A stretch of DNA of 64,000 nt, taken from assembly GCF_000332195.1 (NCBI RefSeq), contig NZ_KB235922.1:2887322-2951321 (forward strand), read 5' to 3'. The DNA comes from Pleurocapsa sp. PCC 7319. Lineage in GTDB: Bacteria; Cyanobacteriota; Cyanobacteriia; Cyanobacteriales; Xenococcaceae. Numbering within the stretch: the stretch's first letter is position 1; each line of letters begins with the position of its first letter. Below, one piece after another: positions 7,294 through 17,304 of the stretch. The translations under genes were made by a program, and so were the position numbers. The notes below the pieces were generated by a model, which saw only the letters and a list, made by a program, of their open reading frames with translations, had not been told where the DNA came from and did not search any database.

Positions 7294-8145
7294 TTATTTG
7301 TTTAAATATTGAGCATGATGCTGAATATGATCCTTTATAAAACTACTAATCATGAAGTAGCTGTGATCGTACCCCGTCTGCCAGCGTAAATTTAACTTTT
7401 GTCCTACTTGTTGGCAAGCTGCTTGAAAGTTTTCCGGTAACAATTGCTTTTGTTGGTAAAATTCATCGGCTGTGCCTTGATCGATCAGAATTGTCGAGTC
7501 TAACTGAGTTTGCTTGATTAGTTCTGTGGCATCATATTTTGCCCACTGATCTTTGTCCCGACCCAAATATGCGGTAAAAAGGTTATCTCCCCAAGGACAA
7601 TTCATGGGTGATGCTATGGGGGCAAAAGCAGATACCGATAAATATTGTTGAGGATTATTTAAAGCACAAATTAATGCCCCATGTCCTCCCATTGAATGTC
7701 CAAAAATACTTTGTTTTTCCGGTTTGACTGGAAAATTAGCAGCAATTAACTGAGGCAATTCTTGAGTAACGTAACTATACATTTGATAGTGCTTCTGCCA
7801 AGGTTCAACCGTAGCATCTACATAAAAACTCGCTCCGCTGCCCAAATCCCAAGTATCGTCTTCTCCTGGTATTCCTGTATTACGAGGGCTTGTATCGGGG
7901 GCAACTAACATAATCCCCATTTCAGCAGCATAACGTTGTGCCCCTGCTTTCGTAATAAAGTTTTCTTCAGTGCAGGTTAATCCAGAAAGATAGTAAAGAA
8001 TTGGCACTGGTTGCACGTTGACTTGGGGAGGGAGATAAACCGCAAAATTCATCTTACTGTCACAACTAGATGAATGATGAGCGTAGTAAGCAACAGTGCC
8101 ATCAAAGCAGCGAGATTCGGACTTGAGACTTAGAGAATGAGACAT
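7294..8145 (-). CDS. fghA: S-formylglutathione hydrolase
   Basis: A 283-residue alpha/beta-hydrolase of the esterase D family, which splits S-formylglutathione to formate and glutathione in formaldehyde detoxification. The nucleophile elbow GHSMGG gives Ser151. The acid is expected at Asp in LIDQGTADEF and the histidine in GYDHSYF. The N-terminal PILYYLSGLTCTEENFITKAGAQRYAAE and APDTSPRNTGIPGEDDTWDLGSGASFYVDAT are near-invariant in this family. Length is normal. Its start codon is only 19 bp from the start of the divergent exonuclease-ATPase gene. The glutathione gene gshA lies in the same window but 29 kb away. Confidence 0.96.
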   Translation of the reverse strand: MSHSLSLKSESRCFDGTVAYYAHHSSSCDSKMNFAVYLPPQVNVQPVPILYYLSGLTCTEENFITKAGAQRYAAEMGIMLVAPDTSPRNTGIPGEDDTWDLGSGASFYVDATVEPWQKHYQMYSYVTQELPQLIAANFPVKPEKQSIFGHSMGGHGALICALNNPQQYLSVSAFAPIASPMNCPWGDNLFTAYLGRDKDQWAKYDATELIKQTQLDSTILIDQGTADEFYQQKQLLPENFQAACQQVGQKLNLRWQTGYDHSYFMISSFIKDHIQHHAQYLNK

Positions 8146-8164: not shown

Positions 8165-10651
8165 TTGCATGTAATTGAGCCATTGGATTTTGTAGTTATT
8201 GATACAGAAGGAACAAGAGACTTGAGAGAAATTGCCATTATTGGTAGTGACGGCAAATTAATATATGAGGCTTTAAATCAGGAATATTCTGATTATATAC
8301 AGCCCATCATCCAGAACAAGCCTCTGAAAAATATACTTTTAGATTTTTTAGAAATTACTGAGCATAAACTGCTGATATTTCATAATGCCAAGCATGATCT
8401 TCAAGTTTTAAAAAAAAGTTTCCAAAAAGCTAATTTACCTGGAAAAAATTTTCCTCAGGTAAAGTGTACATTGCAATTAGCTCAACAATCTTTTCCCAGT
8501 TATTATTCATACTCCTTAGAGTATTTAGCCAAAAAGCTAAATTTAAAAGTAGATCGTCAGTATTTTGATACTCGACAAGCTCATACAGCCAGATATGATG
8601 CTCAATTTACTTACCAACTATACTTAGCCATTCACCAGCATATGACTCAAACTTCTATAACAATTAATCCCTTTGGTAGTAGTCGGGTTGATAATCCATT
8701 TCAAAGTCATCCTGACAATACTAATATTTATCATTCTCAATATACAATTTTAGAATCGGTAATTGATGATATTAAATACGATCAAAATCATCAAAGTAAA
8801 GGTGCAGTAGTCATTGGCGAACCTGGAACTGGGAAAACTCATCTAATCATGCGTTTAGCCAAACAAAGGTTAGAGCTTAATCGCCTGTTGTTTATTCCCT
8901 GTCCTAATGATGCAACTACAATTAAGTACCATACCTACAGCTGCATTTTAGAATCATTAAATAAACAGATACCAGAAACAAAATTTACCCAGTTAGAGTA
9001 TTTTTTGGCCAATACTTTTGTGGGTATTATTCAATCTAGTCATAATCAGACTCAAAAAATCAAAGCTATTTTAGATAGTATTCAAAATAATCCTCTTAAA
9101 CTATATGAAATATTAGGAGGAGCAGGAACCCAGTCTAGAAGGAATAGCTGGGATTCGATTGAAAGAATAACCAATGAATGGTGGCTCAATAAATATGGTG
9201 CGGCAGGTTATGCGCCAGAAATTATTCGAGGAATTGTTAAATTTTGTCGCTACTCCGATCCCAACTATAAACAATTAGTCAAGAAATGGTTGGCTGCTGA
9301 TGAATTAGAAGCAGAAGAATTAACTAAAATTGGCTTAAGCAATTGGAACGATGAGATTAGTAAAGAAGATTTTTCTTTAGAAGCGATCGCAGTTTTAGGC
9401 AAGCTTTCTTTGCTCAATGAACCGTTGATCATAGTCTTTGACCAGCTTGAAATGCTAGGTTTAGAACACAATCGTAATATCTTGCTTAACTTTGGAGAAG
9501 CAGTAAAAGAAATTTTCACCAGAGTACCTCATAGCCTAATTATCTTTAATTTATTTGCCGATCGTTGGCGACAGCTACAGCAAACATTTGATGGTTCCAT
9601 TATCGATCGCATTGCTCAATATCAAGTGATTTTGGAGTCCCCATCAACCAAAGATATCCAAGATATTCTGCAACTAAAAGCTCAGGAGACCAAAATAGAT
9701 TTGGCAAATTTATTTACACCACAAGAGATAGAGCAAATTATTAGCAATAAACCTTCAATACGTGCAGTCTTAAATAATGCTGCTGAATATTTTCGTTATA
9801 AATATAAAAATATTCCTCTTCCAAATCGCAAACTTAAAGCTATTGCCAACTTAGGAGAGAATGAGTCACAAGCAGAAATTTTATCGAGATTAAGCAAACT
9901 AGAATCTCAACAAAATCGATTGGAGCAGTTACTTAAAAATATTGCTCAAGCTTTTAATACTTTTGTTGACAACTCAGATGAAGATAATGAAGAAAGTTCT
10001 TTGGCAATAAACAATCACAATTCAGCTTCCGCTATACCATCAGAACCAGTTAGCTCAGATTCTAAGTTAGTTCCAAAATCTCTGGATGCTAAAATTATTG
10101 ATTATCTGGGAATTCAGCAAAGACTTCTCGAACAAGAATATAGTGAAGCGGAAATTTTACTCGATGAGAAAGATGCTGGAAAACTCAAAGATATCGTTCT
10201 AGCTTTTCAGAAAATCATTAATCTAGAGTTGGATATTTTGCCTAGTAAGCGAGTTTTACCTGCTCATATAGTTATCACTAATAAAAACCTTTGTATTGGC
10301 TTTCTCAGTGCTTGTAAAGGTAGTAAGTTTACTTCTCGGATTCAAAATTATAATGAAATTGTCGCTACTAAAGACCAAATCAAATTCTTACTTTGGCGTG
10401 ATGAGAGAAGTGATCCCATCAAAAATGGAACAGTGGGCAGTAAGGAAATAATTAAACTCAATAATACTAAAAATGGATACTATAAGCCAATTGAGCGCAA
10501 CAATCGGATAACATTTGAATTAATCTATAAATTTATCAGTGCTATCTATAACCAAGATTTAGAAATAGATATTGACACTGAGCTAGAATCTTCACTACAG
10601 ATAGTTGCCGATTATTTTCGGGAATACTGGCTCATAAAAGAATTATTTTAG
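8165..10651 (+). CDS. DEDDh exonuclease fused to a P-loop ATPase, 828 aa
   Basis: The N-terminal 160 residues form a DnaQ-like 3'-5' exonuclease domain: Exo I is DTEG (Asp13, Glu15), Exo II is HNAKHD (Asp78), and Exo III is HTARYD (His140, Asp145), the spacing of the DEDDh subclass. A P-loop GEPGTGKT follows at 218-225, with Walker B LIIVFDQLE around Asp426 and a sensor-like WRQLQQTFDGSIIDRI segment near 470-485. A probable coiled coil (SRLSKLESQQNRLEQLL) lies near 580-600, then an acidic linker, then a 190-residue C-terminal domain of unknown type. The start is a TTG; no ATG is available before residue 160. I do not recognise a named family with this architecture. A nucleic-acid surveillance or defence role is inference. 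Confidence 0.8.
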   Translation: MHVIEPLDFVVIDTEGTRDLREIAIIGSDGKLIYEALNQEYSDYIQPIIQNKPLKNILLDFLEITEHKLLIFHNAKHDLQVLKKSFQKANLPGKNFPQVKCTLQLAQQSFPSYYSYSLEYLAKKLNLKVDRQYFDTRQAHTARYDAQFTYQLYLAIHQHMTQTSITINPFGSSRVDNPFQSHPDNTNIYHSQYTILESVIDDIKYDQNHQSKGAVVIGEPGTGKTHLIMRLAKQRLELNRLLFIPCPNDATTIKYHTYSCILESLNKQIPETKFTQLEYFLANTFVGIIQSSHNQTQKIKAILDSIQNNPLKLYEILGGAGTQSRRNSWDSIERITNEWWLNKYGAAGYAPEIIRGIVKFCRYSDPNYKQLVKKWLAADELEAEELTKIGLSNWNDEISKEDFSLEAIAVLGKLSLLNEPLIIVFDQLEMLGLEHNRNILLNFGEAVKEIFTRVPHSLIIFNLFADRWRQLQQTFDGSIIDRIAQYQVILESPSTKDIQDILQLKAQETKIDLANLFTPQEIEQIISNKPSIRAVLNNAAEYFRYKYKNIPLPNRKLKAIANLGENESQAEILSRLSKLESQQNRLEQLLKNIAQAFNTFVDNSDEDNEESSLAINNHNSASAIPSEPVSSDSKLVPKSLDAKIIDYLGIQQRLLEQEYSEAEILLDEKDAGKLKDIVLAFQKIINLELDILPSKRVLPAHIVITNKNLCIGFLSACKGSKFTSRIQNYNEIVATKDQIKFLLWRDERSDPIKNGTVGSKEIIKLNNTKNGYYKPIERNNRITFELIYKFISAIYNQDLEIDIDTELESSLQIVADYFREYWLIKELF

Positions 10652-10747: not shown

Positions 10748-10945
10748 CTAACTATCGCCTTTTGAATCTTGCTCTGCATCTACTTTAGGGACAATATCAG
10801 GACGCTCTGCATTTTCCCAACCCGCAGGACGTTTGGAGTTATACCAAGCAATTGATCCTATAGATACGGCTGCGATAAAACCAATTACATATACGGCGAC
10901 AAAATAAGTAGGAAATTCACCTGCTACTGCGAACAACAAATTCAT
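10748..10945 (-). CDS. psb35: Small one-helix thylakoid protein, probably Psb35
   Basis: 65 residues with one membrane helix (about residues 10-33, FPTYFVAVYVIGFIAAVSIGSIAW) followed by YNSKRPAGWENAERPDIVPK and an acidic tail. This layout matches my recollection of the small PSII assembly protein Psb35 (Ssl2148 type) that accompanies CP47 assembly modules; I cannot confirm it without a search. The ATG at 10945 is preferred over the in-frame TTG at 10957. It is transcribed alone between the exonuclease-ATPase gene and a repeat-containing gap. Confidence 0.55.
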   Translation of the reverse strand: MNLLFAVAGEFPTYFVAVYVIGFIAAVSIGSIAWYNSKRPAGWENAERPDIVPKVDAEQDSKGDS

Positions 10946-11002
10946 ATCTAAAAACAAGTAATTTTATAGTTAATAATTCTTAATATTACCAGATACCACT
11001 GC

Positions 11003-11983: not shown

Positions 11984-13495
11984 ATGAAACTTTTTTTATT
12001 AAAAATTATTTTACAACGTCGCACCAGGGATGAAGGGTTTACTCTCCCGATGGTAATTGCTTTGGGTTTAGTGATGGTTCTTTTGGGTACGGTAAATATT
12101 GTCAAATCCAATGAAGAAAATCTCAATGCTATTTCGCTCAACAGTTCTTCTGATGCTTTGGCTGTTGCAGAAGTTGGTGTTACTAAGTATCGGGAACTGC
12201 TCAATCAAAATCGTATATTAACTGTCTACAATCACGATCAGTGGACTACCAATGCTAATGTAACTGGGCAAACTTGCGATAATATTGCGACTACTCCCAC
12301 AGGTTGGGAAGATGGTGGTACTGCTGCTGCTCCGAACGATACTACTAAGTGGTGGGAAATAAATGAGAATATCGATGGTACAGCTGGGGATGAAACTATT
12401 GGTGAATATAAATTAGTTAGCTACGTATACGACAATGATGGCAATCGAGCAGATAACGATAATGGTCAGTTTGTTCCTAATGATGATCTGGCTAATACTA
12501 CTGATTCGTTCACCTATAATGATACGGCTTATGATCCTGTAACCAGTCCAAATGGTTACAATCCTAGAGGAATTTTAACTATCCAAGGTCGAAGTAGAGA
12601 TGATAGCGAAGCGCAAATTGAGGTTGAAATTCCTTTACGTATTAATGACTTGGAAAATTTTGCTCCTGTACTTTGGGTAGGAAGTGGTGCGATAAATAAT
12701 TCAGGAACTTTAAATATTGTCGATTCAGAACAAAATATAGTTTTTTCGGGTGCTGGAAGCAATTGTGCAAAGCCTGCTGATATTGATGGCAACAATGTGA
12801 TTAGAGATCCTCGCAGCATTCCATCTATTATTGATGATCCTGCTGGAGTGTCTACTGCTACACCCCCAATACCTGCAATACCCAATACAAATAAAAATGG
12901 TTCAAATAATGGAATTGGTTCTATAAGTACAGTAGGTGGTGAAGTCTTATTGCCAAGACCTCAATCTCCTCCAGACAATAAAACCTCTAGTGATGACCAA
13001 GGACGCTTCTTATATGATATTAGTACTTTAACTATCAATGATAACGATCTTTTAACCGACGGCACGGCTAAAGTAACTTTATACGTTAGAAATAATATAA
13101 CGATTTCAAATACTGGCGGAACAGTTAATTTAGGCAACTTTAATAAAGCTACTTCCAATGTTTCTTCTCATAATTTAGAAATTTATGGTAATACTAGCAC
13201 TCAAATTACAATTGACTCTGGTAGTTCAGGTGACGAAACGAACATCGAAGCCTTTATTCATGCTCCAAACTCAACTATGAACATTGCAGGAAATGGAAGA
13301 GTAAATATTAACGGTGCTGTTTGGGTAAACAATTTTAATATTACTGGAAGCGCAGAAGTAAATATAGAGGGGGATCAAACAGATACTACAACTGGTTCTG
13401 AACCCTCATATAAATTTTATACAACTATTGCCAATAGAACCCCTAGACCAATAACCAGCAGTCCTACTAATTGGGAAAGAGAGGAGGTGGAATAA
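11984..13495 (+). CDS. Large PilX-like prepilin
   Basis: 503 residues. The N-terminus has a class III prepilin signal: basic leader ILQRRTRDEG, cleavage after Gly, then FTLPMVIALGLVMVLLGTVNIV as the membrane/assembly helix. The residue at mature position 5 is not Glu (FTLPM), as is common in PilX/GspK-type tip pilins. The remaining 460 residues are Asn/Asp/Thr-rich and beta-like, with an adhesin-like region around 350-460 (many Asn/Ile strand repeats such as NITISNTGGTVNLGNF). It heads a plus-strand run of four prepilins (spacing 4 bp, then overlap, then 30 bp). By analogy it may be a tip or surface subunit of a type IV pilus or of the hormogonium-type secretion pseudopilus. Confidence 0.72.
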   Translation: MKLFLLKIILQRRTRDEGFTLPMVIALGLVMVLLGTVNIVKSNEENLNAISLNSSSDALAVAEVGVTKYRELLNQNRILTVYNHDQWTTNANVTGQTCDNIATTPTGWEDGGTAAAPNDTTKWWEINENIDGTAGDETIGEYKLVSYVYDNDGNRADNDNGQFVPNDDLANTTDSFTYNDTAYDPVTSPNGYNPRGILTIQGRSRDDSEAQIEVEIPLRINDLENFAPVLWVGSGAINNSGTLNIVDSEQNIVFSGAGSNCAKPADIDGNNVIRDPRSIPSIIDDPAGVSTATPPIPAIPNTNKNGSNNGIGSISTVGGEVLLPRPQSPPDNKTSSDDQGRFLYDISTLTINDNDLLTDGTAKVTLYVRNNITISNTGGTVNLGNFNKATSNVSSHNLEIYGNTSTQITIDSGSSGDETNIEAFIHAPNSTMNIAGNGRVNINGAVWVNNFNITGSAEVNIEGDQTDTTTGSEPSYKFYTTIANRTPRPITSSPTNWEREEVE

Positions 13496-13499
13496 GCTA

Positions 13500-14039
13500 A
13501 TGTATTTGATGTATTTATTTAAATTGAAACATAGAAAATCTTTAAATCAGGGTTTTACAACCTTAGAAATTTTGATCTCAATAATTATTGCACTAGCTTT
13601 TGTGAGTGTTGCTATGCAATCTTTTGTGTTAGCAATGGGTATGAAAGTTCAAGCCCAAGAGAAACAAAGAGCTAATCAGCTAATCCAAGAAGATTTGGAA
13701 CAAGTTAGTACTCTTGCTAGCAATATTGCCGAAGATCACGATAATATGTGTAATCCTGCTGCTTATGCTAATGGCTATGCAAAAGACTTATGGGATGACC
13801 TTAATGCTCTAGCATTACCAACAGCTCAACTTATCCAAAAGGCTGATGGAACTAATGTAGGAAAAACTTTGAGATTGGCACGCAATCATATAAGTAATGG
13901 GAGTAATACCGCTCCCTATCGAACTTTAAAAATTAATTATCAAGTACAAGAATTAGATAGCTCAGATAATCCCACTGGTGATGTTATTGCAGAGCGTTAT
14001 GTGGAGGTAATACCTGATGTTGCTTTACAATGTCCGTAA
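13500..14039 (+). CDS. Prepilin-like protein, HpsB/PilV type
   Basis: 179 residues. The leader HRKSLNQG is followed by FTTLEILISIIIALAFVSVAMQSFVLA, a classical prepilin helix with Glu5 present. The following QAQEKQRANQLIQEDLEQV segment is the amphipathic part of alpha-1, as in the pseudopilins called HpsB in filamentous cyanobacteria. The rest is a small globular domain with one Cys pair (MCNPA and the terminal ALQCP). It starts 4 bp after the PilX-like gene, and its end overlaps the next pilin gene by 23 bp, so translation is probably coupled. Confidence 0.75.
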   Translation: MYLMYLFKLKHRKSLNQGFTTLEILISIIIALAFVSVAMQSFVLAMGMKVQAQEKQRANQLIQEDLEQVSTLASNIAEDHDNMCNPAAYANGYAKDLWDDLNALALPTAQLIQKADGTNVGKTLRLARNHISNGSNTAPYRTLKINYQVQELDSSDNPTGDVIAERYVEVIPDVALQCP

Positions 14040-14565
14040 GAAGATCAATAAGGGTTTTACTCTTGTTGAAATGATTACAACAGTAATTATTGTTGGTGTT
14101 ATAGCTAGTGTTGCTGCTCCAAATTTACTTGGTATGCTCAATCAAGCTCGTGTTAAAGATGGTTTAGCTCAAGTTGAAGGTGCAATAAAAGAGACTCAAA
14201 GACAAGCAATACGCAGAGGAAAAATTTGCAAAATTAAATTTGTTACTGAAACCATTGATGGCAAATCCAGACAAACAATTAACGTTGTTGAAAGTACTGA
14301 TACTGGAGAGACAGTTAGTGCTGGCTACTATAACGGCTGTTTACTAAGCAAAAGAATCTTACCAGTAGACGTATCGGTTAATACAGGTGGTATTACCAAA
14401 ATAACTTTTTCTGGAAAAGGAAATACCGATAGCAGTAGTGAGGGAATAATCAGAATATCTCACCCTCTGACTACGACCGAAAAATGTGTGCAAATAGAAG
14501 GTTTATTAGGAAATATTTTAACAGGAGACTTTGACAGTGGGACTTCTACCTGCAATGCCAGTTAA
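14017..14565 (+). CDS. Prepilin, GspH/FimT (PilA9-PilA11) type
   Basis: 182 residues. KKINKG is followed by FTLVEMITTVIIVGVIASVAAPNLLGML, with Glu5, then KDGLAQVEGAIKETQRQAIRRGK, which is the pattern of GspH/FimT minor pilins. The C-terminal domain has three cysteines near KICKI, NGCLLS and KCVQIEG and ends CNAS. Synechocystis has an analogous run of minor pilin genes (pilA9-pilA11 with slr2018). The start ATG lies inside the previous gene. Confidence 0.8.
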   Translation: MLLYNVRKKINKGFTLVEMITTVIIVGVIASVAAPNLLGMLNQARVKDGLAQVEGAIKETQRQAIRRGKICKIKFVTETIDGKSRQTINVVESTDTGETVSAGYYNGCLLSKRILPVDVSVNTGGITKITFSGKGNTDSSSEGIIRISHPLTTTEKCVQIEGLLGNILTGDFDSGTSTCNAS

Positions 14566-14595
14566 AAAATAACTCTATTGTGTATTTAATTATCA

Positions 14596-15111
14596 ATGCA
14601 GAATAACATCAAAAGAAAGAGCGATCGCGGTTTTACCTTGATAGAATTGATGACCGTTCTTGTAATTATTGGCATTGTCGCTGCGATCGCATCTCCTAAT
14701 TTTCTCGGATTACTCAATCGCACAAAAGTTAACGTTTCATTAGAACAGCTTTTGGGAGCTATTCGAGAAACCCAAAGAATGGCAATGCGTCAGGGTAAAC
14801 GTTGCGACATAAAGATTAATCCAAATACTAATATTATTACTGCGGACCCTTCTAATTGCATATTCAATAACAGAAAGATAGATGAAAATGTAGATATCAG
14901 AACCAATCTTTCTGGTTCAATTCCTAATATTTCTTTTTCCCATAAAGGAAATACAACTAAAATGGGTACTATTGTAGTATCTTCTAATTTAATTAATCAT
15001 CAGAAATGTTTTGTCATTTCTCTGGGTTTAGGTATTATGAGAACAGGTAACTATACTGGGAGTAAAAATGGTTCTGTTTCTGCTAGTAAATGTAAACCAT
15101 CTACTAATTGA
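14596..15111 (+). CDS. Prepilin, GspH/FimT type, paralogue of the preceding gene
   Basis: 171 residues. The leader KRKSDRG precedes FTLIELMTVLVIIGIVAAIASPNFLGLL, Glu5 present, then LEQLLGAIRETQRMAMRQGKRC. It aligns by eye with the upstream pilin along its whole length, including the IRETQR.A.R.GK.C block, a central KGNT motif and the late Cys residues, so the two probably arose by tandem duplication. Start codon is 30 bp after the previous stop. It is the last gene of the plus-strand pilin run. Confidence 0.82.
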   Translation: MQNNIKRKSDRGFTLIELMTVLVIIGIVAAIASPNFLGLLNRTKVNVSLEQLLGAIRETQRMAMRQGKRCDIKINPNTNIITADPSNCIFNNRKIDENVDIRTNLSGSIPNISFSHKGNTTKMGTIVVSSNLINHQKCFVISLGLGIMRTGNYTGSKNGSVSASKCKPSTN

Positions 15112-15332
15112 AACCTTTGATATTCTAAAGTTTTTTGTATTTAATTTTCATTCAAAAAAATCTCTAGATTTTTATCAATAAATATAATTAATTAACATGA
15201 AGCAGTAAAACTTTTAACTCATCCCACGCATAAATGACGTGGAATTTCGTGCTATTAGCTAATTGGGCATCGTCGCCTAATCCAGGTTAAGTCTAGCAAA
15301 ACTTGGGTTCGTTGCTAATGGGACAATTAGCG

Positions 15333-15360
15333 ATTAGCCATTAGCCATTAGCCATTAGCA
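15333..15360. repeat. 7-bp tandem repeat, four copies
   Basis: ATTAGCC occurs four times (the last copy ends in A). It lies in the 447-bp gap between the convergent pilin genes. Elsewhere in the gap (15215-15245 and 15370-15420) are short CCCAC/GTGGG-type palindromes that resemble decayed transposon ends, but I cannot define an element there. Confidence 0.8.
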
Positions 15361-15457
15361 AGCGATGGGGCGACTCATCATCCCACATCTAAAAGAAATG
15401 GGCTTTCCCCGTCGCTTTCTGTAATGGTCTTAGTATTGATTAAGAAAGCATAAAATT

Positions 15458-15494
15458 AAAATCGACTCAAAGATTTAATGATTGAGTCGATTTT
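15458..15494. terminator. Bidirectional terminator between convergent pilin genes
   Basis: A 13-bp perfect inverted repeat, AAAATCGACTCAA (15458-15470) and TTGAGTCGATTTT (15482-15494), with an 11-nt loop. The A-run on one side and T-run on the other give a U-tract in both directions, which suits its place between a plus-strand and a minus-strand operon. Confidence 0.88.
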
Positions 15495-15558
15495 AAGAAG
15501 ATTAAAAACAAGTTTTGAAAAAAGAGTGATAGAAAGGCCTATTGATCATTATTAGTCA

Positions 15559-17304
15559 TTACGGTGATTTAAAGGCATCTGAAGTTATTATAAACATACT
15601 ATCTTGCAAATCGAATCCAGGGTTTGCTGTTGTACCATCAGGTAATAGATTATTATCTTGACCTATTTCAAATGCAACTATACGTTGATCGGGCTTAAGT
15701 TTAGAAGAAATAACGTCACCGTTGCTGTCAACATAAGCATCACTTGTATTCCCATCTCCATTAGGGTCTTGTAAAAATTCTCTTATCGATGGTTGATCGC
15801 CGTCAGCAGGTTCATAATTTCCATCTGCGTCAACATCATAGCCTCCAATGTCTGGAACATTACTATCATTTCTAAACATATAGACGGTACCATCTCCTTT
15901 TACATCAGCATTATCAGTTGCTTCGCCATTGAAAGTTGCTTGCTTGCGACTTATTTCAGTAGCATCATCTCCTGTTTGGGGAAACTCAATTGTATGCCAA
16001 ACTTTTTGTTCGTATGTATGAATTTCCTCTGTCCCATCTGCTGTAACTTCATTGGGGTTAGTTACAACATTGCCATTTGCATCGACGTACTCATAAACAG
16101 GATTAGATCCATCATTGTTAATAGATACAAGTTTTTGTTTATATCTATTCCCTCTAGCAAGACATGTATCACCAAAGTTAGATCCTTTAGGATTTTCTGC
16201 TGCAAAGGCACTAGCAACCATGGTAAATGGTTTAGTAGTATCAGTTTTTAAAGGCTGTGGTTGTCTATTTTCTTCATGAATCCAGGTAAATATATTGCTT
16301 AGTGCATTTGGATTAGGAGACGCTTCATTTGGATCAAAGCTAGGATTTATGCCTTCACCAAAGTCATTTCTTACCTTCCAACATGGTCTATTAGGACCAA
16401 TTTCTCGACCATACTGTGGATTTAGTGACTTGAGAGACATGGTGTAAGAGTCTAAATCCTCAGAATTACTGTCTGGTGCAGTTCTGGCTCTGGCTACGGC
16501 TTGGGTATCTGCAAAATAGCTACTATCAAGTACTTCTCCAGCAAAGAAAAGTTGAGCTGTAATAGATTTTCCGTCAACGTCTGCCCCATCTCCAGCGTCT
16601 ATTTTGCCATCTCCATTAAGATCTGTAGTATCATCAGCATCTATATCTCCATCTCCATCTGTATCTGTTGCATTTTCAACTATAGGATTGCCAGCAGCAT
16701 CTGTATCTCCATCATCATCTACTACGCAGGCGAAGAAGCCTTGGTAAGTTGTGCTGCTTCCACCGCAGGCTTGAATTTGATCCGTATCATCGACTTTATC
16801 AACTAATGCTTCGTTAGTCCAACCAGTGGGATTATCCACACGTCCTGCACCAGTTGTACTATAGTTACCATTTGCATCTAATTCTGGACCCCAGCGATAA
16901 ATTACTAAAGGTCCTTTCCAGGGAGACCCACTTTTTGGTGGTGCAACTGAATAGATTACTCTTTCTGATGTTCCTGGTATTTCCAATGCTAACCTTACTG
17001 TACCTCCTGTTGGCACAGTATAGTTAGGAGCTACGGTGCTTATGTTGCCACTAGTCATATCAACTTCAATTGATTGGGCACGTCTTAATTCATCAGATAT
17101 AAATTCTAAAGCGCGAGAAGTTTCGTTACGTGCTGCTATTTTAGTACTTTCAGTTTGACTAGATCTTAATACCTGCATCAAGCCAAAGCCTAATGCACCA
17201 ATTACAAAAACACTCATTACCAAGCCAACAAGCAGCTCAGTTAGAGTAAAACCAGCATTAGATTTATTTTTTTTTAAAAGTTTGCGAAACTCTTTATTTT
17301 TCAT
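15559..17304 (-). CDS. Large pseudopilin, HpsC/PilW-like, with Ca-loop-like repeats
   Basis: 581 residues. The leader LLKKNKSNAG is followed by FTLTELLVGLVMSVFVIGALGFGLM, Glu5 present, then SSQTESTKIAARNETSRALEFISDELRRAQSI, the start of a PilW/HpsC-type pseudopilin. Around residues 200-250 lies DTDGDGDID then DLNGDGKIDAGDGADVDG, which has the DxDGDGxxD spacing of dockerin or EF-hand-like calcium loops; similar DxDGN and DPNGDG stretches occur near 480-530. It is much longer than ordinary minor pilins. It faces the four-pilin run across a bidirectional terminator. Role in pilus or polysaccharide secretion is by analogy. Confidence 0.72.
   Translation of the reverse strand: MKNKEFRKLLKKNKSNAGFTLTELLVGLVMSVFVIGALGFGLMQVLRSSQTESTKIAARNETSRALEFISDELRRAQSIEVDMTSGNISTVAPNYTVPTGGTVRLALEIPGTSERVIYSVAPPKSGSPWKGPLVIYRWGPELDANGNYSTTGAGRVDNPTGWTNEALVDKVDDTDQIQACGGSSTTYQGFFACVVDDDGDTDAAGNPIVENATDTDGDGDIDADDTTDLNGDGKIDAGDGADVDGKSITAQLFFAGEVLDSSYFADTQAVARARTAPDSNSEDLDSYTMSLKSLNPQYGREIGPNRPCWKVRNDFGEGINPSFDPNEASPNPNALSNIFTWIHEENRQPQPLKTDTTKPFTMVASAFAAENPKGSNFGDTCLARGNRYKQKLVSINNDGSNPVYEYVDANGNVVTNPNEVTADGTEEIHTYEQKVWHTIEFPQTGDDATEISRKQATFNGEATDNADVKGDGTVYMFRNDSNVPDIGGYDVDADGNYEPADGDQPSIREFLQDPNGDGNTSDAYVDSNGDVISSKLKPDQRIVAFEIGQDNNLLPDGTTANPGFDLQDSMFIITSDAFKSP

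What the first reader, a model, noticed from the sequence alone, without database searches (positions are those of the whole stretch)
8165..10651. Exonuclease-ATPase fusion protein of unrecognised family
One 828-residue chain joins a complete DEDDh exonuclease domain (Asp13/Glu15, Asp78, His140/Asp145) to a P-loop ATPase (P-loop 218-225, Walker B about 426 with an unusually long insert), a coiled coil and a C-terminal domain of unknown type. Coupling a nuclease to an ATP-driven sensor is the logic of many anti-phage proteins, yet the protein is not in a known cassette: its neighbours are fghA and a photosystem gene. Seen: motifs and order. Known: DnaQ-like and AAA/STAND-type families. Inferred: nucleic-acid surveillance or defence.
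Basis: partly seen in the sequence, partly recalled or inferred. Interest (0 to 1): 0.78.

Follow-up and report, generated by a model that had tools for sequence, protein, structure and literature searches.

The report
Solitary exonuclease fused to DNA-ring ATPase
A cyanobacterial protein joins a DNA/RNA-trimming enzyme to an ATP-driven, probably DNA-gripping motor; it belongs to an unnamed, patchily kept family related to the motor of a proposed multi-gene anti-invader system, and its job, probably guarding against foreign DNA, is still untested.

Summary
Window 8165-10651 (+) encodes 828 aa: a DEDDh 3'-5' exonuclease, an AAA+ ATPase, a coiled coil and a C-terminal alpha/beta domain without a Pfam family. 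All five nuclease residues are intact in 61 of 62 rows that have them; Walker K/T/D and Arg482 are invariant in 77 of 77. The ATPase is of the ORC/Cdc6 type. The nearest sister family found is the ATPase of a cyanobacterial operon (winged-helix gene beside it in 28 of 30 loci, 3'-5' exonuclease gene in 20 of 30, with FtsK where read far enough) resembling the published 'HerA/FtsK capture' anti-invader systems. The window family has an exonuclease fused to the ATPase instead, and none of those partner genes was found near it (0 of 94 loci). It is patchy (24 of 292 cyanobacterial genomes), has decayed in place in two relatives, sits on some plasmids, also occurs in giant sulfur bacteria, and has lost the exonuclease at least twice. 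Best reading: a one-gene, ATP-gated DNA-guarding exonuclease derived from that lineage. Defence is inferred; copies mostly lack defence neighbours, so a DNA-maintenance role remains a serious rival. New variant of a known kind.

The parts
8165..10651 (+). exonuclease-ATPase gene, 828 aa, TTG start
8183..8644 (+). DEDDh 3'-5' exonuclease domain (res. 7-160; D13, E15, D78, H140, D145)
   Evidence: Pfam RNase_T over cut-off; residues intact in 61 of 62 rows; Foldseek RNase T, PolC exonuclease, Streptococcus DnaQ-domain structures
8660..9829 (+). ORC/Cdc6-type AAA+ ATPase (res. 166-555) with all-helical insert after strand 2
   Evidence: model; Foldseek BrxC, Cdc6, TnsC; hhalign to sister ATPase family
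8816..8839 (+). Walker A GEPGTGKT (218-225)
   Evidence: K224, T225 in 77 of 77 rows
9425..9451 (+). Walker B strand (res. 421-429; D426, E429)
   Evidence: D426 and E429 in 77 of 77 rows
9608..9610 (+). Arg482, candidate arginine finger just before strand 5
   Evidence: 77 of 77 rows; position from model; role inferred
9761..9763 (+). Arg533, candidate sensor-2 arginine of the C-terminal helical bundle
   Evidence: invariant in A3; role inferred
9824..9958 (+). long helix / coiled coil (554-598), followed by a low-confidence linker to about 637
   Evidence: model; linker mean pairwise identity 0.18
10073..10648 (+). C-terminal alpha/beta domain (637-828), possibly an inactive restriction-endonuclease-like fold; no D-(D/E)xK motif seen by eye
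   Evidence: model pLDDT 95; weak fold matches only; no Pfam
7294..8145 (-). fghA-type esterase gene, left flank; marks the conserved locus
10748..10957 (-). small photosystem-type ORF, right flank of the conserved locus
   Evidence: name recalled

Best explanation
A one-gene, ATP-gated DNA-guarding nuclease. An ORC/Cdc6-type AAA+ ring or filament loads on DNA, with the C-terminal alpha/beta domain and coiled coil as DNA or partner reader; ATP binding or hydrolysis positions the N-terminal DEDDh exonuclease on exposed 3' ends, which it trims. The family shares its ATPase lineage with the ORC/Cdc6 component of operons that resemble 'HerA/FtsK capture' anti-invader systems; there a 3'-5' exonuclease sits on the FtsK partner, here an exonuclease of a different subtype is fused to the ATPase and the FtsK and winged-helix partners are absent. 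Most likely role: degrading or blocking incoming or replicating foreign DNA. Shown: domain set, conserved catalytic and ATPase residues, sister relation, patchy and dispensable occurrence. Inferred: oligomerisation, DNA as substrate, order of steps, defence.
For: Nuclease residues intact in 61 of 62 rows, ATPase residues in 77 of 77, purifying selection. Profile-profile match to the sister ATPase family over residues 162-828, probability 98.4, E 5.5e-15. The sister operon carries a winged-helix gene (28 of 30 loci) and a 3'-5' exonuclease gene (20 of 30) beside the ATPase; of three such exonuclease proteins scanned, all have DNA_pol_A_exo1 and PDDEXK_1 and two also FtsK; the one compared with PADLOC matches SspH, E 1.5e-66. 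This is the kind of composition that PMC10853773 section 22 describes for anti-invader systems. Accessory behaviour: 24 of 292 genomes, 8 of 13 in the genus, a remnant in the fghA spacer of G011 (tblastn E 8.7e-6) and a C-terminal remnant with a stop in G020 between argS-like and panB-like genes, where G013 is intact; full-length copies on 7 plasmid records. Defence-type neighbours in some: GmrSD/HEC-05 type in 6 loci of one clade, a type IIG restriction-methylase and a TIR protein, to which I attribute the ThsB hit, beside two S. elongatus plasmid copies.
Against: The loci I could read mostly show the gene alone among housekeeping-type genes (output partly cut; by eye). In PADLOC scans of 140 nearest and 70 distant neighbours, of which each output lists only the first 25 families, only the HEC-05/PDC-M55C group stood out (6 against 0), and its six loci form one Nostocales clade on the tree. 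The tree mostly follows cyanobacterial families, as for an old resident gene. The exonuclease was lost at least twice, so the ATPase has a use without it. In 10 of 30 sister loci no exonuclease gene was seen within 1.5 kb, and in two of five longer ones (L154, L156) none beside the ATPases. No relative was found in viral contigs. C-terminal homology to the sister family alone is not significant (score 19.0; 1 of 30 column shuffles higher).
Confidence: 0.48

Rival explanations
1. A DNA-maintenance factor of polyploid bacteria: the ORC/Cdc6-like ATPase works at the cell's own forks, breaks or recombination intermediates and the exonuclease trims 3' ends.
For: Mostly solitary and, where assigned, chromosomal; a locus shared on the fghA side by 5 of 8 carriers in the genus; tree largely follows families; occurs in cyanobacteria and giant sulfur bacteria, groups with many genome copies (for giant bacteria a passage of PMC10580974; for cyanobacteria recalled); six of 20 sulfur-side assemblies hold two paralogues, one of the exonuclease-free clade.
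Against: No match at E <= 1e-30 in 268 of 292 cyanobacterial genomes sampled; decays in place in sister genomes; plasmid copies; the sister family lies in operons of anti-invader-like composition.
Confidence: 0.29
2. A plasmid or mobile-element function (maintenance, incompatibility, transfer) that became resident in chromosomes.
For: Full-length copies on 7 cyanobacterial plasmid records, in two S. elongatus plasmids examined divergent from parA; ORC/Cdc6-type relatives serve transposition (TnsC).
Against: Neighbour clustering found no partner shared by most loci; no relative found in viral contigs.
Confidence: 0.1
3. An RNA-surveillance exonuclease driven by a STAND-like sensor, as in abortive defence.
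For: RNase T is among the best structural matches of the nuclease domain; DEDDh enzymes cut RNA or DNA (recalled); weak Pfam matches to novel STAND families in the P-loop part.
Against: Sequence matches are best to PolC and epsilon proofreading exonucleases and CRISPR-associated DEDDh; the ATPase is ORC/Cdc6-type; no repeat family appears in the Pfam scan.
Confidence: 0.08

Closest known systems
'HerA/FtsK capture' systems with ORC/CDC6 ATPase (PMC10853773, NAR 2024)
   Same: Homologous ATPase lineage by way of the cyanobacterial sister operon; a 3'-5' exonuclease in the system; an alpha/beta domain after the AAA+ core, where the paper puts an inactive REase.
   Different: Exonuclease (DEDDh, RNase_T type) fused to the ATPase rather than a DNA_pol_A_exo1-type one on FtsK; no FtsK/HerA or winged-helix partner gene of the sister type, no C-terminal winged helix recognised; no constant partner gene.
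BrxC / DUF499-type BREX ATPases
   Same: ORC/Cdc6-type AAA+ core (Foldseek E 3.8e-3 and 4.6e-3).
   Different: BrxC is 1200-1300 residues with winged-helix domains in a multi-gene locus (passages of PMC12839542); not seen here.
Exonuclease-DinG (S. aureus DinG)
   Same: N-terminal DEDDh exonuclease fused to an ATP-driven nucleic-acid motor in one chain; top Foldseek hit.
   Different: DinG's motor is an SF2 helicase, not AAA+; the match rests on the exonuclease (overall TM 0.16).
CRISPR-associated DEDDh (Cas2-DEDDh; S. thermophilus DnaQ domain 8h18/8h2f)
   Same: Best PADLOC match of the nuclease domain (52.9 bits) and close fold (TM 0.70 to target 8h18).
   Different: No Cas2 domain in the chain; CRISPR context was not searched for.

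Membership tests
DEDDh 3'-5' exonucleases | D-x-E, D, H-x4-D catalytic residues in an RNase_T fold | tested here: met
   activity not tested
ORC/Cdc6-clade AAA+ ATPases | Walker A and B, arginine finger at base of strand 5, C-terminal helical bundle | tested here: met
   K224/T225/D426/R482 in 77 of 77, R533 invariant, strand 5 at 486-490 and helices 495-548; criteria from passages of PMC12839542
ORC/Cdc6-clade AAA+ ATPases | fold match to solved members | tested here: met
   BrxC, Cdc6 1fnn, TnsC with E 3.8e-3 to 1.1e-2: modest
ORC/Cdc6-clade AAA+ ATPases | HEH insert after strand 2 (as the paper puts it for BrxC/BrxD) | tested here: inconclusive
   the stretch between strand 2 (ends 244) and Walker B (starts 421) is all helical in the model
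HerA/FtsK capture systems | homologous ORC/CDC6 ATPase | tested here: met
   hhalign probability 98.4 to the ATPase of the sister operon, whose composition resembles the published one; not compared with the paper's own sequences
HerA/FtsK capture systems | inactive REase after the AAA+ core | tested here: inconclusive
   order of elements compatible; Foldseek E >= 0.02 to Mus81-Eme1 and 0.07 to Shedu; profile match to the sister domain not significant
HerA/FtsK capture systems | linked HerA/FtsK gene | tested here: not met
   0 of 94 loci (some duplicates, some cut by contig ends) hit by the sister exonuclease-FtsK proteins; a HerA-NurA pair lies upstream in one plasmid, L023
HerA/FtsK capture systems | C-terminal winged helix and DndG-like multi-winged-helix gene | tested here: not met
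   no such Pfam match in the C-terminal region; 0 of 94 loci hit by the sister winged-helix proteins
Known anti-phage families (PADLOC 2023) | whole-chain model match | tested here: not met
   only the exonuclease part matches DEDDh and PDC-S48 models; P-loop stretch weak to mad8
Anti-phage defence proteins | protects against phage or plasmid | not testable with these tools
   needs experiment

The most novel reading that the evidence does not exclude
A stand-alone anti-invader system not yet described: a single polypeptide in which the DNA-gripping ORC/Cdc6 ATPase of the HerA/FtsK-capture lineage has taken over the exonuclease itself, replacing a three-gene machine; in giant sulfur bacteria it works with an exonuclease-free paralogue, giving mixed rings with tunable nuclease dose.
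Probability: 0.33. Interest if true: 0.72.

Novelty: new variant of a known kind. Interest (0 to 1): 0.52.

Why it matters
If it works as proposed, a multi-gene proposed defence machine whose mechanism is unknown would have a one-gene counterpart that can be expressed, purified and tested in one step, showing what the ORC/Cdc6 component and the 3'-5' exonuclease do together. The family also ties cyanobacteria to giant sulfur bacteria and offers natural exonuclease-free versions as built-in controls.

Tried and rejected
Rejected: replicative proofreading subunit. The gene is the only RNase_T match in its own genome, but 7 of 13 genomes of the genus have no RNase_T match at E <= 0.001, three of them (G001, G002, G003) although they carry the gene, so that search misses members and the argument is weak; absence of the gene from 5 of 13 genus genomes is the better argument.

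Rejected: phage gene. No relative found in viral contigs (a pattern-based search); only the exonuclease part hits two Listeria phage records.

Rejected: constant defence cassette. Neighbour clustering (ORFs of at least 70 aa, greedy choice) found no partner shared by most loci. PADLOC counts used 140 of 165 nearest neighbours and 70 of 119 distant ones; dropped rows were near-copies, long ORFs and others chosen by hand, and each output lists only 25 families (of 83, 85 and 53). The 6-against-0 GmrSD/HEC-05 count is descriptive only.

Not settled: fold of the C-terminal domain. Foldseek top hits (small GTPases, APOBEC, Mus81-Eme1) have E >= 0.019 and TM about 0.3. Homology of this domain to the sister's: score 19.0 against shuffled-column maxima 23.1, 17.8, 17.3 of 30; an earlier comparison with five sister rows gave E 0.24.

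Lateral transfer: with the sister family as a distant root, sulfur-bacterial rows fall inside cyanobacteria (support 94, long branches); without it they are one side of a branch. Direction is not claimed. Only the best 80 of 123 confirmed loci were returned, so counts for sulfur bacteria are lower bounds.

Literature: seven searches on the fusion and its relatives showed no title or abstract start on this fusion, and one was on distribution. Supplementary data of PMC10853773 could not be read, so the architecture may be listed there.

Changed on re-check: the six GmrSD-type loci prove to be one clade of the tree, so they count as one association; for this I lowered the best explanation from 0.50 to 0.48 and raised the maintenance rival from 0.27 to 0.29.

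Full report
What is there. The window lies in a 7.39 Mb, 99.99% complete genome whose same-genus relatives are Pleurocapsa-type cyanobacteria (loci L040-L043; identity of handles inferred from equal contig lengths and coordinates). ORF 8165-10651 (+) encodes 828 aa. It stands alone: fghA is divergent, 19 bases upstream, a small photosystem-type ORF follows on the other strand, and the larger ORFs of the rest of the window read as housekeeping and pilin-like genes (gene names read by eye).

Domains. Residues 7-160 are an RNase_T/DEDDh exonuclease (39.8 bits, cut-off 24), closest by sequence to PolC and epsilon proofreading domains and, in PADLOC, to CRISPR-associated DEDDh (52.9 bits). Residues 166-555 are AAA+: the model has strand 212-218, Walker A, strand 241-244, an all-helical stretch, the Walker B strand 421-425, strand 457-463, Arg482 before strand 486-490, then a helical bundle with Arg533. 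Foldseek finds BrxC, Cdc6 and TnsC for this part with E of about 4e-3 to 1e-2. A helix 554-598, a variable linker and an alpha/beta domain 637-828 follow. The last has no Pfam family, no PDB sequence relative up to E 5 and only weak fold matches; its order of elements allows an inactive restriction-endonuclease-like fold, but that is not shown.

Is it kept? Alignment A3 holds the window and 76 homologues. The nuclease residues are intact in 61 of 62 rows that have all five positions; K224, T225, D426, Q427, E429 and R482 are in 77 of 77. Mean pairwise identity is 0.48 (exonuclease), 0.56 (ATPase), 0.18 (linker), 0.44 (C-terminal); dN is well below dS in the three folded parts for the seven pairs computed, where dS could be estimated.

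Where it occurs. Of 40 genomes (own included) 21 have some match, many of them weak matches to the sister family; strong matches (E < 1e-80) are in 14, and in 8 of 13 of the genus. In an even draw of the phylum 24 of 292 genomes have it, 15 of 115 genera. The genome scan confirmed 123 relatives and returned 80: cyanobacteria, Thiotrichaceae and other gammaproteobacterial sulfur bacteria, one Desulfobulbaceae, one Campylobacterales. Twelve plasmid records match, 7 over at least 80% of the chain. Two phage records match in the exonuclease part only; no relative was found in viral contigs.

Gain and loss. Five carriers in the genus (own, G001, G004, G005, G012) have it beside or within 2 kb of fghA, four of them with the photosystem-type ORF on the other side (the contig of G001 ends); a sixth (G009) keeps only the 73-aa neighbour; G002 and G003 have it elsewhere. 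In G011 fghA and the photosystem-type ORF are 588 bases apart and the spacer holds a remnant of residues 661-716 (tblastn E 8.7e-6). In G020 a C-terminal remnant with a stop lies between argS-like and panB-like genes, where G013 is intact. The gene can therefore be lost. The exonuclease itself was lost at least twice, in Xenococcaceae and in one sulfur-bacterial clade (2 changes; 10 rows scored exonuclease-free, three contig-end rows not scored); no separate exonuclease of this type was found in the DNA held for those loci. Six of 20 sulfur-side assemblies carry two paralogues on different contigs, one from the exonuclease-free clade; in two of the six the state of one copy is not certain (L080 has an incomplete N-terminal frame, L113 starts near a contig end).

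The sister system. Weak hits led to a second ATPase family, A5. Profile comparison with A3 covers residues 162-828 with probability 98.4 and E 5.5e-15. In the five longer loci examined its operons hold a gene of about 270-330 aa, with winged-helix-type Pfam hints only, and one or two ATPases side by side; in L155 and L157 the next gene is DNA_pol_A_exo1 + PDDEXK_1 + FtsK_alpha + FtsK_SpoIIIE in one chain, in L158 the exonuclease and PDDEXK parts, and in L154 and L156 none was seen. Over 30 loci the winged-helix gene is adjacent in 28 and the exonuclease gene in 20 (flanks of 1.5 kb, so partners further off and most FtsK parts are missed). The FtsK protein tested matches SspH at E 1.5e-66, while the two ATPases and the winged-helix protein tested match nothing in PADLOC at 1e-4. 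This resembles the composition of the 'HerA/FtsK capture' systems in section 22 of PMC10853773 (read in full): ORC/CDC6 ATPase, inactive REase before a winged helix, a 2-4 winged-helix protein, HerA/FtsK, sometimes with a fused 3'-5' exonuclease. That paper infers an anti-invader role from gene associations. The sister family is in 32 of 292 genomes and both families in 8 (2.6 expected without regard to kinship, taking the two draws as the same genomes), so they do not exclude each other.

Reading. Two families of one ATPase lineage have each been coupled to a 3'-5' exonuclease of a different subtype: by operon and FtsK partner in the sister, by direct fusion here. That makes exonuclease-ATPase cooperation the likely core function, and DNA the likely substrate. 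Whether the substrate is foreign or own DNA is open. Defence-type neighbours exist: GmrSD/HEC-05-type genes in six loci (five immediately downstream, one upstream; L077 confirmed by Pfam, the others by clustering and by the HEC-05 counts), all in one Nostocales clade; a type IIG restriction-methylase and a TIR protein, to which I attribute the ThsB hit, beside the two S. elongatus plasmid copies examined. They are a minority, and 140 nearest neighbours show no other clear excess over 70 distant ones in the capped lists.

Limits. All function is inferred. The ORC/Cdc6 assignment rests on moderate fold scores plus motif positions; membership criteria come from passages of PMC12839542. The window protein is not a member of the HerA/FtsK capture systems as defined, since FtsK and the winged helices were tested and not found; it is best called a stand-alone relative of their ATPase. 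Papers: PMC10853773 section 22 and passages; PMC12839542 and PMC10580974 passages; all others search listings only.

Noticed in passing
L155:3827-6355, L157:4659-7451, L158:5438-6913 and loci L159-L188: A cyanobacterial operon (winged-helix gene, one or two ORC/Cdc6-type ATPases, often an exonuclease-PDDEXK gene, with FtsK in the two read in full) whose FtsK protein matches SspH but whose other tested parts match nothing in PADLOC: an apparently uncatalogued anti-invader candidate; its ATPase is in 32 of 292 genomes.
   Followed up: partly
L062/L117, L069/L114, L071/L109, L073/L112, L080/L115, L082/L113: Six sulfur-bacterial assemblies hold two paralogues on different contigs, one of the exonuclease-bearing and one of the exonuclease-free clade (state of L080 and L113 not certain).
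   Followed up: partly
L065, L066, L078 just downstream of the homologue: A small same-strand gene of about 200-235 aa, 149 and 43 bases downstream in the first two and overlapping by ten bases in the third, in Scytonema/Rivularia; no Pfam or PADLOC match for the one tested (L066).
   Followed up: partly
L023:8065-11427 (Tolypothrix plasmid): HerA (DUF87) and NurA genes upstream of the homologue: a DNA-end-processing pair beside an exonuclease-ATPase.
   Followed up: no
window 11984-17304: Cluster of pilin-like/pseudopilin genes (N-terminal GFTL motifs), one a 581-aa ORF on the - strand with an Asp/Gly-rich, calcium-repeat-like stretch.
   Followed up: no
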